Origin: Acephala macrosclerotiorum
Taxonomy: Eukaryota; Ascomycota; Leotiomycetes; Helotiales; Mollisiaceae
DNA: 64,000 bases
Direction: 5' to 3'
Assembly: GCA_014904845.1 (NCBI GenBank)
Contig: MU119261.1
Span: forward strand, 194,516-258,515
The notes below the pieces were generated by a model that had not been told where the DNA came from, did no database searches, and worked only from the letters and a program-made list of their open reading frames with translations. Below are positions 44,849 to 49,659 of this stretch, one piece after another. Every line of letters starts with the position of its first letter. The stretch's first letter is position 1. A program made the position numbers and the translations under genes.

Positions 44849-47800
44849 ATGACTGCGAACGATCCGGCTGGTGGACAATCCGCGAGGCTGAACCAGGAAA
44901 TCCTCAGAGCCTTGTACAAGTTAAACTATCGAGATGCTAAAAATCGAATTCCAATCCCAACAAAAGGGACCTGCGGGTGGTTCCTCGATAATCCTCACTT
45001 CAGTGAGTGGAAAGACGGTCGAGCCAATTTGCTTTGGGTGGTCGGCAATCCTGGCTGTGGAAAATCCGTTCTCGCCAGAGCACTCGTCGACGGTGCTTTC
45101 GGCAACCAAGGATTGCCTCATTCAGAAACCACGACAATTTGTTATTTCTTCTTCAACCAGAGCTCTGCGGATGAGCGTAGTGCGGCCAACGCAGTTGCGT
45201 CTATACTACACCAGTTGTTCCTCGCAAAGCCAACGCTTCTTGAGCATGCCTTAAGATTAGATGATTTCAGGAATGGGACCCGCCTTGGAGAGATGTTTAA
45301 ACCAATGTGGGATCTACTTACAACTCTTGCTTCGGACACTGAGGCTGGTGAGATCATCTGTGTCCTAGATGCTTTGGATGCATGCATTGGAGAAGACAGG
45401 GTCCAATTTGTTGCTACCCTAGAAAGACTACTCTCTAATCCTCGACGACCCGGGACGAACTTCAAGCTCTTGATCACCAGCCGACCACATAAGGATTTTG
45501 ATCAAATTTTCGAGGAACAATCAATGAATATGGCCAAGATTGACTCTAAAAGCCAGGAGATAAGTGACCTTCAGCGACAAGATATCAACTCGTTCATTGA
45601 CGCAAGCGTCGATGGACTAACTGCGTCGGGAAGGTACAGCCCAGAAACAATGGAGATTTTGAAAAAAGGACTTCGCGCGACCAATCATGGCACATTTTTA
45701 GAGGTCCAGCTGAGGCTTCAAATGGTCCAGCAATCAGTTTTTCCAACGAAGAAGGAGCTACAAAGGATCCTAGAAGATGTCCCGACTACTTTAGATGATT
45801 TATACGAATCAATATTAGACCAAAGCGATGATCCGGAACTTGTAATGTCAATGCTTCGACTCATTGTCGGAGCTAGAAGACCATTTTCACTGACGGAGCT
45901 CAGCGTGGCACTCGTTGTAGAAGAAGGCGAGAAGGTGTACGAAGATCTCAATCTCCGCAAATATACCCCCGAATTCGCAAAGAAAATCAGGTCGTTTTGC
46001 GGTATGGTCGAGGTTGTTGACCATAAGGTGAGCTTCGTTCATCGGTCGGCCAGAGATTTTCTCGTTTCCAAAATGGCTGGAATGGATGGACCTGGTCCAA
46101 CGCGCCAACACACGGACACGAGAGACCTGAACTTGATTTTAGCAAGACGATGCATGCTATTTCTCAATTTCGACCGATTCAAGAAAGATCCCATAGTACC
46201 AAACAAGCACGAGACATTCGAAGAAATCGGGATGAAAGTGCATGAATACGTCGACAACAATATTTTCTTGGAATACGCAGCAACTTACTGGATGCACCAC
46301 GTCAGAGAAGCCGGGGACAGTATTAAGTCAGCGAATCTGTTGGAAATGTCTGTCAAGCTTTGCTCGACCACGTGTCCGCGATTTCATACTTGGTTCACCG
46401 TATATTGGATCCATTGGGATATCAATACTGGGAGACCATTCCCTCAAGGTCTAACCGATCTCATGGTAGCCTCTCTTCTCGGCTTGAAAGTTGTCGTTCG
46501 TTTTCTGACAGATAACGGAGCGAATATTGCGGACTGCGATGACGACGAATGCACGGCTCTGCACTGGTCGGCCGAGGGTGGATACGTAGATGTAGTCGCT
46601 CTTCTTCTAGACCAAGGCGCCGCTATCTCAGCGATTACTCGTGGGGGGCTTACGCCATTACACAAGGCGGCTGCAAAAGGCCACCAAGCTGTAGTCTCGT
46701 TATTACTCAAGAAGGGCGTCGGGGTAAATACGAGAGCCAGCAACAGAGACACACCTCTGCATATGGCAGCGTATTATGGGCGCCCGGCCGCCGTTCAGAC
46801 TCTATTGGAGGGCGGTGGAGAATTCATCTCCTCTGGTGCCCATGGACAATCACCTCAGCAAGTTGCTATCGAGCAGGGTGCGAAAGCCTGTACGGAGGAA
46901 GCGAAAGAGCGGTACAAAGCTGTTGTGCGGCTTCTTAAGGCCGCCGATTTTGAAGCAAGTGGAGTGGCAGATGATCCATCATTGATTAGAAAACAGGTGG
47001 ATGAGCTTTTCAAAGCGAGTGTCATCCATTTCCGGGACTTCAACAGCAGTTTCCGGGAGCGGTGGATCCGGGAGGGTTGGGCCCCTCCCTCTGTCAGCAA
47101 CATGTCTCTAACCGATCTATTCAACGAACAGGACAGGCCGGAAGACGGATTTTTTCGTTGGATTCATCTTCCGGCCAACAACGTATGTTTTCCCTTTGCT
47201 GACTTAGGGTGAACAAAGACATACTGACAGATCTAGATGAGATGGATTGAGGTATGGAATTAGGCAATCTGGTTTCCAGGCCGTTACGGTATTGGCTAAC
47301 TCGGCTCCCTAGCTTTTGATGCACCAACACTTCAAATCGAAAGGAGGCCGCCCCGCTCAAACTACAGTCTTGAAAAAGGAGCTTTGGGCACAGAGACAAC
47401 ATCGGGGCTCCAAAAGATCTTTTATCTCTTTCATGAGACCAATCAGCCAGATTGTAGAAGTCGAGATGAGTACGGACAATATCGAAGTGTTCTGTTACTG
47501 AGTCGGTCAAATGCTCACCATTTCTACAGATGTGAACGAAGAAGACGAAGGTCATGGAAGTGGGAACGACCAAGAAGATGTGAATGTTGTGTTCGTCAGT
47601 TGCAAAGCGCCTACAATTTGGCTAAGTGGAATTTGCTAAGATTTATTCAGATGCCCTTTATGCACTGGGAAACACGATCTAGGCAACTGGATCTAGATTT
47701 TTTTATCCTTCTTAAATTCCTTCTCAACCTTCTGGATGATTATGAAACAAACCCGAGTATTAGCTCCAACCTGAATCAACTTCCAGAGGATGACATGAAA

Positions 47801-49659
47801 TTTCTCTGGAACTCTTTGCGCAAATCTCATTCACAGGCCGTCCTCCAGTTCCGGGACAAAGGAGACCAAGGAATCGACGAAGCTGAGTTCTTGAAATACC
47901 TGCGGCCAGAGGGCAGAACATTGAAAGTTTTATCTACCGATCCTGTACAAATAGAAAGACCATGGAGCCTTTCCAAGGATGACCTTGACATCTTCTCGGT
48001 TCACTGGCAGGAATCGAAGGTCCGTAAGACAAGTATTCTACCAAGAAAAAATGCAAAGAGTCCAAAACAGATCCACCAAGCTCTACACGCGTGTCATCAG
48101 TGGAATGTTAGAGGAAACCGGGATAAAATGCTCGCCGATGCATACGTTGCAGATACACACCCTCTCCATATGCGTCGAACCTTGGACCAATCATATTACT
48201 ATATGCTGGATAATACAAGACCTAGGGACCGAGACCAAGTTGTGTCCCGCTATGGCAAGAGGTTGTCACGGAGACATCCTGTTATGATCATGGTTGATCA
48301 GCTTGTGAGAGCAATTATCCAGCAGATGCTTTCCCTTCTCTCATCATGCAATTGCTGACTTACGATCATTCTAGTGGATGTGGGGATTCAAAGGTAAAAT
48401 TGTTTTCAATGTCCCTGGATGTTGTGGCTAACGATTTCCATCCAGATACTGTCATAACCAGCTTCCCACAGAGACAAGGGGTTCCAGACGACGATCCTGA
48501 TCCCTATGGTATGACGGACGTGTTCCAAAGTATGCTTCGGAATACTTCTGGAGTCAGTGACACGAGAGATTTAGCAAACAGGATTATAGGTGCTTGCTCT
48601 GGTGCATGTTTCGACACTACAAAATTCTTGGATGATGAGTTTCAGTTTCTCGAAGCTTTTGAAAGTTCTATCGGTGCTGTGGTCAGTCAGCACTCGCTTC
48701 TGACCCTAGAGACATATGCTTATTTCCAGACGAGGCCAATGCCGAAGCAGCCTGTTATCAGCGGTTCACGAAATCGCTCGAGTCCCCGGGTGCACTAGAT
48801 CTCTCCAATATCAAGGAAGAATCTGAATTGCTTCGAGAGGTAAAGGATATCCTCGACGAGCTGAACATGATTTCAATCATTTTCTCGGAGCAGCGACGGA
48901 TCTCGGGCTGGGGAGGTGGCCTTCAGACTCTTGAACAAAATCAAATCAAGATCAACACAATGCAAGCACAAGCCAGCAAGACTTATGAATCGGTATGATA
49001 TGAAGACTCTCCCCTTGTTCACAGACACTGCTAAGTCGGCTTAGTTGAAGGATCTCATGGATCTCCGACAAAAACACGCCAATCTTCAAGAGGCTCGCTC
49101 AGCTCGACAGCAGGCAGACGAGACCTCGAAGCAAGGCAATACCATCATGGTATTCACCATTGTGACGATCTTATTCGTAAGTAAACTAGTGTTCTTCCAA
49201 GCTGATTTCTATTGCAGACTCTAAGATGGACAGCTTCCCGCCTCATTCATGGCCTCTTTCTTCGCACTCGCAATCAGCCAATTTCCTCGTGACCCAAACA
49301 GCATGCTCGAACTTCACTACGTAGTGAAATACATGCGTAAGTCCATTCCACTTGGGAAACTTTCAGCACATGTGATAACACTTTATACAGTGATTTTCAC
49401 AGCTGTGGTGGCGACGTTCTTCATCGTCATGGCCTTCCGAATCAACCAGATCGCGGCTTTCCTCAAAAATATCGGAAGAAAGTTTCAAGGGAAAAGCCCG
49501 GAAGCTCCGATTAAAGGCACGGAATATGATGAGGATGATTCACTCGACGAGAAAATGCAGACTTTGACGAGTGTCGAGCCGGTTAAGAGTCGGTGGGCGA
49601 GGGCAAGACACCCATGGAGTAGTAGGCGGAGGGACGAGACTCCATCGTCATTTGCTTGA
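44849..49659 (+). CDS. NLR-like NACHT NTPase / ankyrin / CorA-like membrane fusion protein
   Basis: Eleven exons: 44849-47182, 47237-47251, 47313-47469, 47530-47594, 47651-48304, 48375-48393, 48446-48685, 48730-48992, 49045-49176, 49234-49336 and 49391-49659, product 1416 aa. After about 60 residues comes a NACHT-type STAND domain: P-loop GNPGCGKS (66-73), Walker B-like IICVLDALDA (169-178), sensor FKLLITSRP (205-213) and a fungal winged-helix tail (FVHRSARDFLVS). Residues about 533-680 form roughly four ankyrin repeats (TALHWSAEGGYVDVVALLL, TPLHKAAAKGHQAVVSLLL, TPLHMAAYYGRPAAV). From about 773 the protein becomes a fungal CorA-like module: RWIHLPANN|MRWIE, MPFMHWET, RRTLDQSYYYML, DQVVSRYG, MIMVDQL|WMWGFKD, TVITSFPQR. 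It ends with a coiled segment and two membrane helices at about 1280-1306 and 1328-1346. The canonical GMN loop is absent (FFALAI in its place). The donors at 47470 and 48686 are the least certain. Confidence 0.82.

What the first reader, a model, noticed from the sequence alone, without database searches (positions are those of the whole stretch)
44849..49659. NLR-like receptor with a C-terminal CorA-like membrane module
One splice-consistent model fuses a STAND NACHT NTPase, ankyrin repeats and a CorA-like two-helix membrane module (1416 aa). Fungal NLRs usually carry their effector domain at the N-terminus. Here the N-terminus before the P-loop is only about 60 residues and the only effector candidate is C-terminal and membrane-spanning. 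The CorA GMN loop is replaced (FFALAI), so a Mg2+ carrier role is doubtful. Inferred hypothesis: ligand sensing by ankyrin repeats and NTP-driven oligomerisation gate or assemble a membrane pore, a self/non-self or immune-type death device, or couple surveillance to ion flux.
Basis: partly seen in the sequence, partly recalled or inferred. Interest (0 to 1): 0.82.

Follow-up and report, generated by a model that had tools for sequence, protein, structure and literature searches.

The report
Fungal NLR with built-in CorA-type channel
A fungal gene joins an immune-receptor-like switch (NACHT plus ankyrin repeats) to a CorA-type membrane channel in one protein; the same layout recurs in other moulds and lichens but seems unstudied, and its altered ion filter and ATPase site suggest a sensor-gated pore rather than a magnesium carrier.

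The parts
44849..47182 (+). Exon 1: start codon, NACHT, winged-helix-like region, ankyrin repeats, beginning of CorA-like module (778 codons)
47237..47251 (+). Exon 2: 15-nt microexon (MRWIE)
   Evidence: matches HLPANNMRWxE of homologues
47313..47469 (+). Exon 3 (3' end less certain)
47530..47594 (+). Exon 4 (5' end less certain)
47651..48304 (+). Exon 5: CorA-like soluble domain, RRTLDQ and MVDQ motifs
48375..48393 (+). Exon 6: 19-nt microexon (WMWGFK)
48446..48685 (+). Exon 7 (end may be 48681)
   Evidence: alternative read by eye
48730..48992 (+). Exon 8 (start may be 48735): stalk-helix region
   Evidence: alternative read by eye
49045..49176 (+). Exon 9: end of stalk helix, start of TM1
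49234..49336 (+). Exon 10: end of TM1, FFALAI loop, start of TM2
49391..49659 (+). Exon 11: TM2, charged tail, stop codon
44966..45484 (+). NPHP3_N/NACHT domain, residues 40-212
   Evidence: E 3e-37
45044..45067 (+). Walker A GNPGCGKS, residues 66-73
45368..45382 (+). Walker B DALDA, residues 174-178; the usual final Glu is Ala
45845..46072 (+). Winged-helix-like region (GPIID_WHD, below cut-off), residues 333-408
   Evidence: 19.5 bits vs cut-off 27
46451..46954 (+). Ankyrin repeats, residues 535-702
47156..49497 (+). CorA-like module, residues 770-1363 (introns included in span)
   Evidence: fold judged on homologue P0003
49141..49260 (+). TM1, residues about 1282-1302 (one intron inside span)
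   Evidence: hydropathy
49258..49275 (+). FFALAI, the site of GMN in CorA
49321..49443 (+). TM2, residues about 1323-1345 (one intron inside span)
   Evidence: hydropathy

Best explanation
The gene encodes an all-in-one NLR-type receptor whose output domain is a CorA-type membrane channel at the C-terminus. Shown by sequence: one continuous NACHT-Ank-CorA reading, an intact P-loop, loss of the Walker-B glutamate, a CorA-like module whose homologue is predicted to fold like CorA in soluble domain and stalk, and replacement of the GMN filter. Inferred, in order of decreasing support: (a) the CorA module oligomerises in a membrane as CorA does (pentamer; recalled) and carries the NACHT-Ank heads on its cytosolic side; (b) ligand binding to the ankyrin/NACHT heads changes the packing of the CorA soluble domains and stalk helices, as Mg2+ occupancy does in CorA (recalled), and opens the pore; (c) without GMN the pore is not a Mg2+-selective carrier and its opening gives an ion leak that signals or kills; (d) with Walker A kept and the Walker-B Glu lost, the NACHT binds ATP but hydrolyses it poorly, so it acts as a slow or one-way switch or as a nucleotide-occupancy sensor; (e) the role is self/non-self or immune-type surveillance.
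Against: No expression, localisation, oligomer, conductance or phenotype data. The membrane part of the P0003 model is not well superposed on CorA (rows that include it have rmsd 10-13 A). Loss of the Walker-B Glu, and a P. subalpina relative (P0001) annotated without the full P-loop and without TM helices, could mean relaxed constraint. 5 of 21 fused proteins have long N-terminal arms. Of 120 listed relatives of the C-terminal half, 103 are ankyrin-CorA proteins without NACHT by Pfam, so the module has a role outside NLRs. The link between NACHT fusion and loss of the Asn of GMN is not significant once phylogeny is allowed for. No repeated DNA of 18 bases or more in the ankyrin stretch, so no sign of fast-evolving near-identical repeats. 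In Morchella, barrages also formed between strains with the same alleles.
Confidence: 0.42

Rival explanations
1. Metal or ion homeostasis: the CorA module is a regulated ion channel of altered selectivity, and NACHT-Ank is a regulatory input (ATP, metal or partner binding) with no role in immunity or death.
For: 103 of 120 listed relatives of the C-terminal half are ankyrin-CorA proteins without NACHT by Pfam; conventional fungal CorAs serve Mg2+ uptake (PMC4945025, passages); one same-genome relative without a detected NACHT (C266, L014/L043) keeps FFGMN.
Against: No Gly at the GMN site in 203 listed homologues scored, and the motif is described as essential for Mg2+ transport (PMC4945025, passages); the nearest relatives of the N-terminal half are CorA-free NACHT proteins (119 of 120 listed).
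Confidence: 0.25
2. Integrated decoy or anchor: the CorA module is a non-conducting membrane anchor or a bait for foreign effectors, and signalling runs through NACHT-Ank.
For: 185 non-canonical domains occur in 378 Sordariales NLRs and some are proposed decoys (PMC12258605, passages); GMN is lost.
Against: All 59 conserved family positions tested, in soluble domain, stalk and membrane part, are kept in this protein, more than an anchor needs; the arm before the P-loop is short with no recognised effector.
Confidence: 0.18
3. Decaying receptor: a formerly working NACHT-Ank-CorA gene that is losing function.
For: Walker-B Glu is Ala; P0001 is annotated without the full P-loop and without TM helices.
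Against: Ten introns that splice to an open frame without frameshift; all tested conserved CorA positions kept. Loss of the Glu recurs on several branches of the fused group, which fits altered function as well as decay.
Confidence: 0.1
4. Gene-model artefact: two neighbouring genes, NACHT-Ank and CorA, wrongly joined.
For: Both halves also occur apart; no transcript data.
Against: The exon 1 end and exon 2 together encode the conserved HLPANNMRWxE motif; P0001 and 19 other database proteins carry both halves.
Confidence: 0.03

Closest known systems
Fungal NACHT-ankyrin NLRs (NPHP3_N type; surveyed in PMC4986451 and PMC12258605)
   Same: NACHT with P-loop followed by ankyrin repeats; the best CorA-free rows are 33-35% identical over 98-99% of residues 1-560.
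   Different: Short N-terminal arm, Walker-B Glu lost, and a CorA-like channel module after the repeats.
Pezizomycotina ankyrin-CorA family (PF01544 with ankyrin repeats; e.g. P0018, P0044)
   Same: The long CorA-like module and preceding ankyrin repeats; all 59 tested conserved positions shared.
   Different: 103 of 120 listed relatives have ankyrin and CorA but no NACHT by Pfam; the commonest third residue at the GMN site is Asn (118 of 186 unfused scored), here Ala.
NACHT-Ank-CorA proteins of other fungi (P0002, P0004, P0005, P0007, P0008, P0010, P0013, P0030, P0241-P0244, P0246, P0257-P0259, P0280, P0297, P0341)
   Same: Same domain order.
   Different: Apart from P0001 (56% over 78% of the searched C-terminal part) they are distant; Walker-B and filter residues vary; five have long N-terminal arms.
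CorA/ALR/MNR2 Mg2+ channels (Thermotoga CorA structures; fungal Alr2/Mnr2)
   Same: Fold of soluble domain and stalk, judged on homologue P0003; two TM helices near the C-terminus.
   Different: No GMN; NACHT-Ank added at the N-terminus.
CorA effectors of type III CRISPR (SAM-AMP; PMC10600005, passages)
   Same: A CorA-type membrane module used as the effector of a defence sensor (analogy only).
   Different: Activated by a diffusible messenger from a separate complex, not fused to the sensor; sequence homology was not tested.
Morchella importuna mimpvic32 (PMC8940278, section 15 and passages)
   Same: Fungal CorA-domain protein at a locus linked to vegetative incompatibility.
   Different: 765 aa in the text (773 in its table); no NACHT reported; its sequence was not compared here.

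Membership tests
Fungal NLR (STAND NACHT receptor) | NACHT domain by curated model | tested here: met
   PF24883 E 3e-37 and PF05729 E 5.5e-7, both above cut-off
Fungal NLR (STAND NACHT receptor) | Walker A GxxxxGK[ST] | tested here: met
   GNPGCGKS, residues 66-73
Fungal NLR (STAND NACHT receptor) | Walker B hhhhD[GAS]hDE (consensus as quoted in PMC12258605, passages) | tested here: not met
   CVLDALDA: both Asp present, final Glu is Ala. I therefore call it NLR-type with a variant Walker B
Fungal NLR (STAND NACHT receptor) | C-terminal superstructure-forming repeats | tested here: met
Fungal NLR (STAND NACHT receptor) | NACHT fold by structure comparison | tested here: inconclusive
   Lists were filled by ankyrin structures
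Fungal NLR (STAND NACHT receptor) | N-terminal effector domain | tested here: not met
   Residues 1-39 match no Pfam family; roughly half of surveyed fungal NLRs have no annotation there either (PMC4986451, passages)
Fungal NLR (STAND NACHT receptor) | Ligand-induced oligomerisation and signalling | not testable with these tools
   Needs biochemistry
CorA superfamily | PF01544 above cut-off | tested here: met
   30.5 bits vs 27
CorA superfamily | CorA fold of soluble domain and long stalk helix | tested here: met
CorA superfamily | Two TM helices near the C-terminus in the CorA arrangement | tested here: inconclusive
   Two hydrophobic helices are present, but their placing in the P0003 model differs from CorA (rmsd 10-13 A when included)
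CorA Mg2+ transporters | GMN after TM1 | tested here: not met
   ALA at the site; hence CorA-superfamily by model and fold, but not a CorA-type Mg2+ transporter by motif
CorA superfamily | Pentameric channel | not testable with these tools
   No multimer prediction available
Pezizomycotina ankyrin-CorA family | Shared conserved positions of the long CorA-like module | tested here: met
   19 of 19 invariant and 40 of 40 tested nearly invariant positions (44 listed)

The most novel reading that the evidence does not exclude
A channel-NLR: CorA-type oligomerisation holds several (CorA-like: five) NACHT-ankyrin heads together in the membrane before any signal arrives, so the receptor does not need to assemble. 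Ligand plus ATP occupancy of hydrolysis-poor NACHT heads opens the attached non-GMN pore directly. This would be a fungal immune-type receptor that is itself the ion channel, a separate solution from the N-terminal pore-forming effectors of other NLRs and parallel to CRISPR CorA effectors.
Probability: 0.22. Interest if true: 0.85.

Novelty: new variant of a known kind. Interest (0 to 1): 0.56.

Why it matters
If right, several fungal lineages keep an NLR whose sensor and ion channel are one polypeptide, which would make the step from recognition to membrane permeability directly testable in a single protein. The recurrent loss of the Walker-B Glu with the P-loop kept gives a sharp handle on whether NLR switches need hydrolysis. 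It also suggests that part of what annotation pipelines call 'ankyrin repeat protein/Mg2+ and Co2+ transporter CorA' in filamentous fungi (names) is not Mg2+ transport.

Tried and rejected
Uniqueness of the domain order: rejected.

Several independent NACHT-CorA fusions: I first read the trees that way. On the NACHT tree (73 of 140 NACHT-bearing rows; P0002 left out) the data do not reject one clade for the 20 fused rows used (p-AU 0.52), nor MODEL+P0001+P0004+P0005 (p 0.28). On the CorA tree (74 of 234 rows) the first test rejected one clade (p 2e-36), but it included rows such as P0003, which looks like a truncated model of the P0005 type (90.6% identical, starting at P0005 residue 585). After I dropped nine rows (P0003, P0006, P0017, P0240, P0328, P0336, P0342, P0346, P0287) p was 0.042, and 0.47 without P0030/P0243/P0246 in the clade. 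So one old fusion plus perhaps one more is the most that can be said. P0240 has a partial NACHT match that did not pass my cut-off and is not among the 21.

NACHT fusion goes with loss of the Asn of GMN: raw counts 2 of 17 vs 118 of 186 (2 of 20 fused with a wider pattern), but only 4 independent pairs on starred branches and no significance; not claimed.

CorA at the C-terminus replaces the N-terminal effector: the arm-length difference is real in raw counts but not corrected for kinship and contradicted by five long-armed members; kept only as a trend.

Structure search of the NACHT-Ank model: lists filled with ankyrin structures; kinship of the NACHT rests on Pfam. Sequence search of the PDB with A1 was likewise flooded by ankyrins in the 60 rows shown. 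A plasmid protein search with the CorA-like part found nothing.

Paper searches aimed at this architecture: in the papers whose passages I opened I found no description of NACHT-Ank-CorA as an NLR type. Many listed papers were seen as listings only, the library is open-access only and no supplements were read; table S11 of PMC12258605 may list CorA. Passages of PMC10694956, PMC10714772 and PMC6525431 had no bearing.

A weak further CorA-like place in the genome (C12:509054, E 0.0098) was not examined.
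Full report
Gene and model. The window lies in a 69.7-Mb, 778-contig genome. The gene runs from ATG 44849 to stop 49659 on the + strand. An alignment with P0001, P0002, P0005, P0018, P0030 and P0044 supports 8 of 10 joins closely, notably HLPANN|MRWIE|LLMH, which needs a 15-nt microexon at 47237-47251, and VDQL|WMWGFK|DTVITSFPQR, which needs a 19-nt exon. The join 47469/47530 lies in a poorly conserved stretch, and 48685/48730 has an alternative that would remove three residues (my reading of the sequence, not a call).

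Domains. Exon 1 alone scores NPHP3_N E 3e-37, NACHT E 5.5e-7 and several ankyrin families; a winged-helix family is below its cut-off. The rest scores CorA PF01544 E 2.9e-7, just above cut-off. Two hydrophobic helices stand near residues 1282-1302 and 1323-1345. The arm before the P-loop is 65 residues; residues 1-39 match no family.

How widespread. With the C-terminal half as query, 413 proteins reached E 1e-3 and 120 were listed: 8 of the 120 carry both NPHP3_N and CorA by Pfam, and 103 carry ankyrin and CorA without NACHT (my count of the Pfam column). With residues 1-560 as query, 354 were found and 120 listed; none of the 120 carries CorA by Pfam, although P0001, the nearest, has the CorA-like module without its end. 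A third search aimed at long proteins listed 120 of 186, of which 16 carry both. The union, checked with my own NACHT and CorA profiles, is 21 proteins including the window's and P0001. Lists were capped, so this is a lower bound. Source names include Phialocephala, Stipitochalara, Venustampulla, Lachnellula, Aspergillus, Fonsecaea, Rhypophila, Xylaria, Neoarthrinium, Cladorrhinum, Pseudocyphellaria and Sticta. Taxonomy was looked up for four of these (Lecanoromycetes, Sordariomycetes, Eurotiomycetes, Leotiomycetes).

Same genome. NPHP3_N gives 156 matches, a lower bound, and PF01544 gives 17, some of them exons of one gene. Seven other places carry this long CorA-like module (C39, C44, C78, C130, C266, C419, C437); in the 8.6-9.9 kb stretches fetched around them none shows a NACHT by my profile, while the window does. 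So the window gene is the only fused copy among eight places examined; NACHT further away than the fetched DNA cannot be excluded, and one weak place (C12) was not examined.

The ion-filter site. The motif could be read by pattern in 17 of 21 fused and 186 of 213 unfused proteins; none has Gly at the first position, and Asn at the third is kept in 2 of 17 fused and 118 of 186 unfused. In the same genome six of the 17 PF01544 loci read GMN at the equivalent place (L001, L002, L007, L011, L014, L017), two read SMN (L012, L015), one STG (L010), one AIS (L006, the ankyrin-CorA copy on C39); the others were neighbours of the same gene or not readable by the pattern. L014 lies at C266, whose module belongs to this extended family by my profile (L043), so GMN is not lost in every relative. 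GMN is described as essential for Mg2+ transport (PMC4945025, passages). Ala in place of Asn is a further step, with Pro in the nearest relatives that could be read (P0002-P0006). The fused/unfused contrast does not survive a phylogenetic pair test.

The ATPase site. On a common NACHT alignment, Walker-A Lys is kept in 19 of 21 fused (2 gaps) and 119 of 119 unfused; the first Walker-B Asp in 19 of 21 and 119 of 119; the second Asp in 14 of 21 and 119 of 119; the final Glu in 13 of 21 and 119 of 119. The full P-loop is readable in 18 of 21; P0001, P0002 and P0010 lack it as annotated. The unfused set was found with the window protein as query and is therefore a near clade. As a control I fetched 40 of the listed NPHP3_N places of the same genome, picked by hand over the score range among those with open frames of 439 aa or more and no stop inside: 38 keep Glu, one has Lys, one could not be scored (Fisher p 6e-4 against the fused set, not corrected for kinship). 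On the 73-row NACHT tree, with P0002 left out, the change needs 5 steps, 4 if Glu to Asp is ignored. The NACHT consensus hhhhD[GAS]hDE is quoted in PMC12258605 (passages). That loss of this Glu impairs hydrolysis is general knowledge of P-loop NTPases, recalled, not tested.

History. The trees are compatible with one old NACHT-Ank-CorA lineage, with a possible second fusion in the group of P0030, P0243 and P0246. I do not claim convergence.

N-terminal arm. 16 of 21 fused proteins have at most 110 residues before the NACHT profile, against 36 of 113 unfused ones beginning with Met (6 of 119 unfused rows were dropped because they do not begin with Met). Five fused proteins have arms of 209-317 residues; P0013 and P0257 show a weak alpha/beta-hydrolase match there, below cut-off. 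The CorA part therefore need not be the only output in the group.

Literature. In three papers on fungal NLRs and cell death, the passages returned by a search for 'CorA' held only the words coral or corals; I read passages only (PMC4986451, PMC12258605, PMC12881547). The second reports 185 non-canonical domains in 378 NLRs; its supplement was not read. PMC8940278 (section 15 and passages) maps a CorA-domain gene, mimpvic32, as one of two candidates at a locus linked to vegetative incompatibility, with the caveat that barrages also form between strains with the same alleles. PMC5371717 (passages) lists an A. nidulans gene with WD, ankyrin and CorA domains, so such combinations are visible in annotation tables. 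PMC10600005 (passages) gives the CRISPR CorA precedent, with the pore postulated by its authors.

Verdict. Real, well-supported anatomy; a new variant of the fungal NLR kind, recurrent, and not described as such in the papers I opened. The channel-gating mechanism is the most economical reading of a receptor joined to a CorA-like module, but every functional step is inference.

Noticed in passing
45380-45382 (residue 178): Walker-B Glu replaced by Ala; lost in 8 of 21 NACHT proteins fused to CorA, in 0 of 119 near CorA-free ones and 1 of 39 scorable same-genome ones.
   Followed up: yes
P0001 (Phialocephala subalpina PAC_12153): The nearest relative is annotated without the full P-loop and without the TM helices; its Walker-B Asp reads Gly. 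Wrong gene model or decay.
   Followed up: partly
L014/L043 (G000:C266): A relative of the long CorA-like module in the same genome that reads FFGMN and gave no ankyrin match in the tblastn; a possible ancestral state.
   Followed up: partly
L038 (G000:C130): Contig length 150605 equals that of P0046 (Acephala macrosclerotiorum BDZ45DRAFT_75687), which aligns there at 88% over 663 columns counting gaps; the window's genome is probably that species or very near it.
   Followed up: partly
P0240 (Aspergillus foveolatus): CorA-like protein with ankyrin and many repeat-type families and only a partial NACHT match; A. nidulans AN6960 in PMC5371717 is listed with WD, ankyrin and CorA.
   Followed up: no
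724-39099: Of ten large ORFs of the window scanned by Pfam (of 26 of at least 180 aa), eight matched: KRR1, GATA/Asd-4, Ion_trans_2, SKN1/KRE6 (two ORFs), DUF3716, Avl9, cullin. My NACHT profile hits nothing else in the window, so no NLR cluster is visible here.
   Followed up: partly
P0013, P0257: NACHT-Ank-CorA proteins with an N-terminal alpha/beta-hydrolase-like stretch (below cut-off) as a possible second effector.
   Followed up: no
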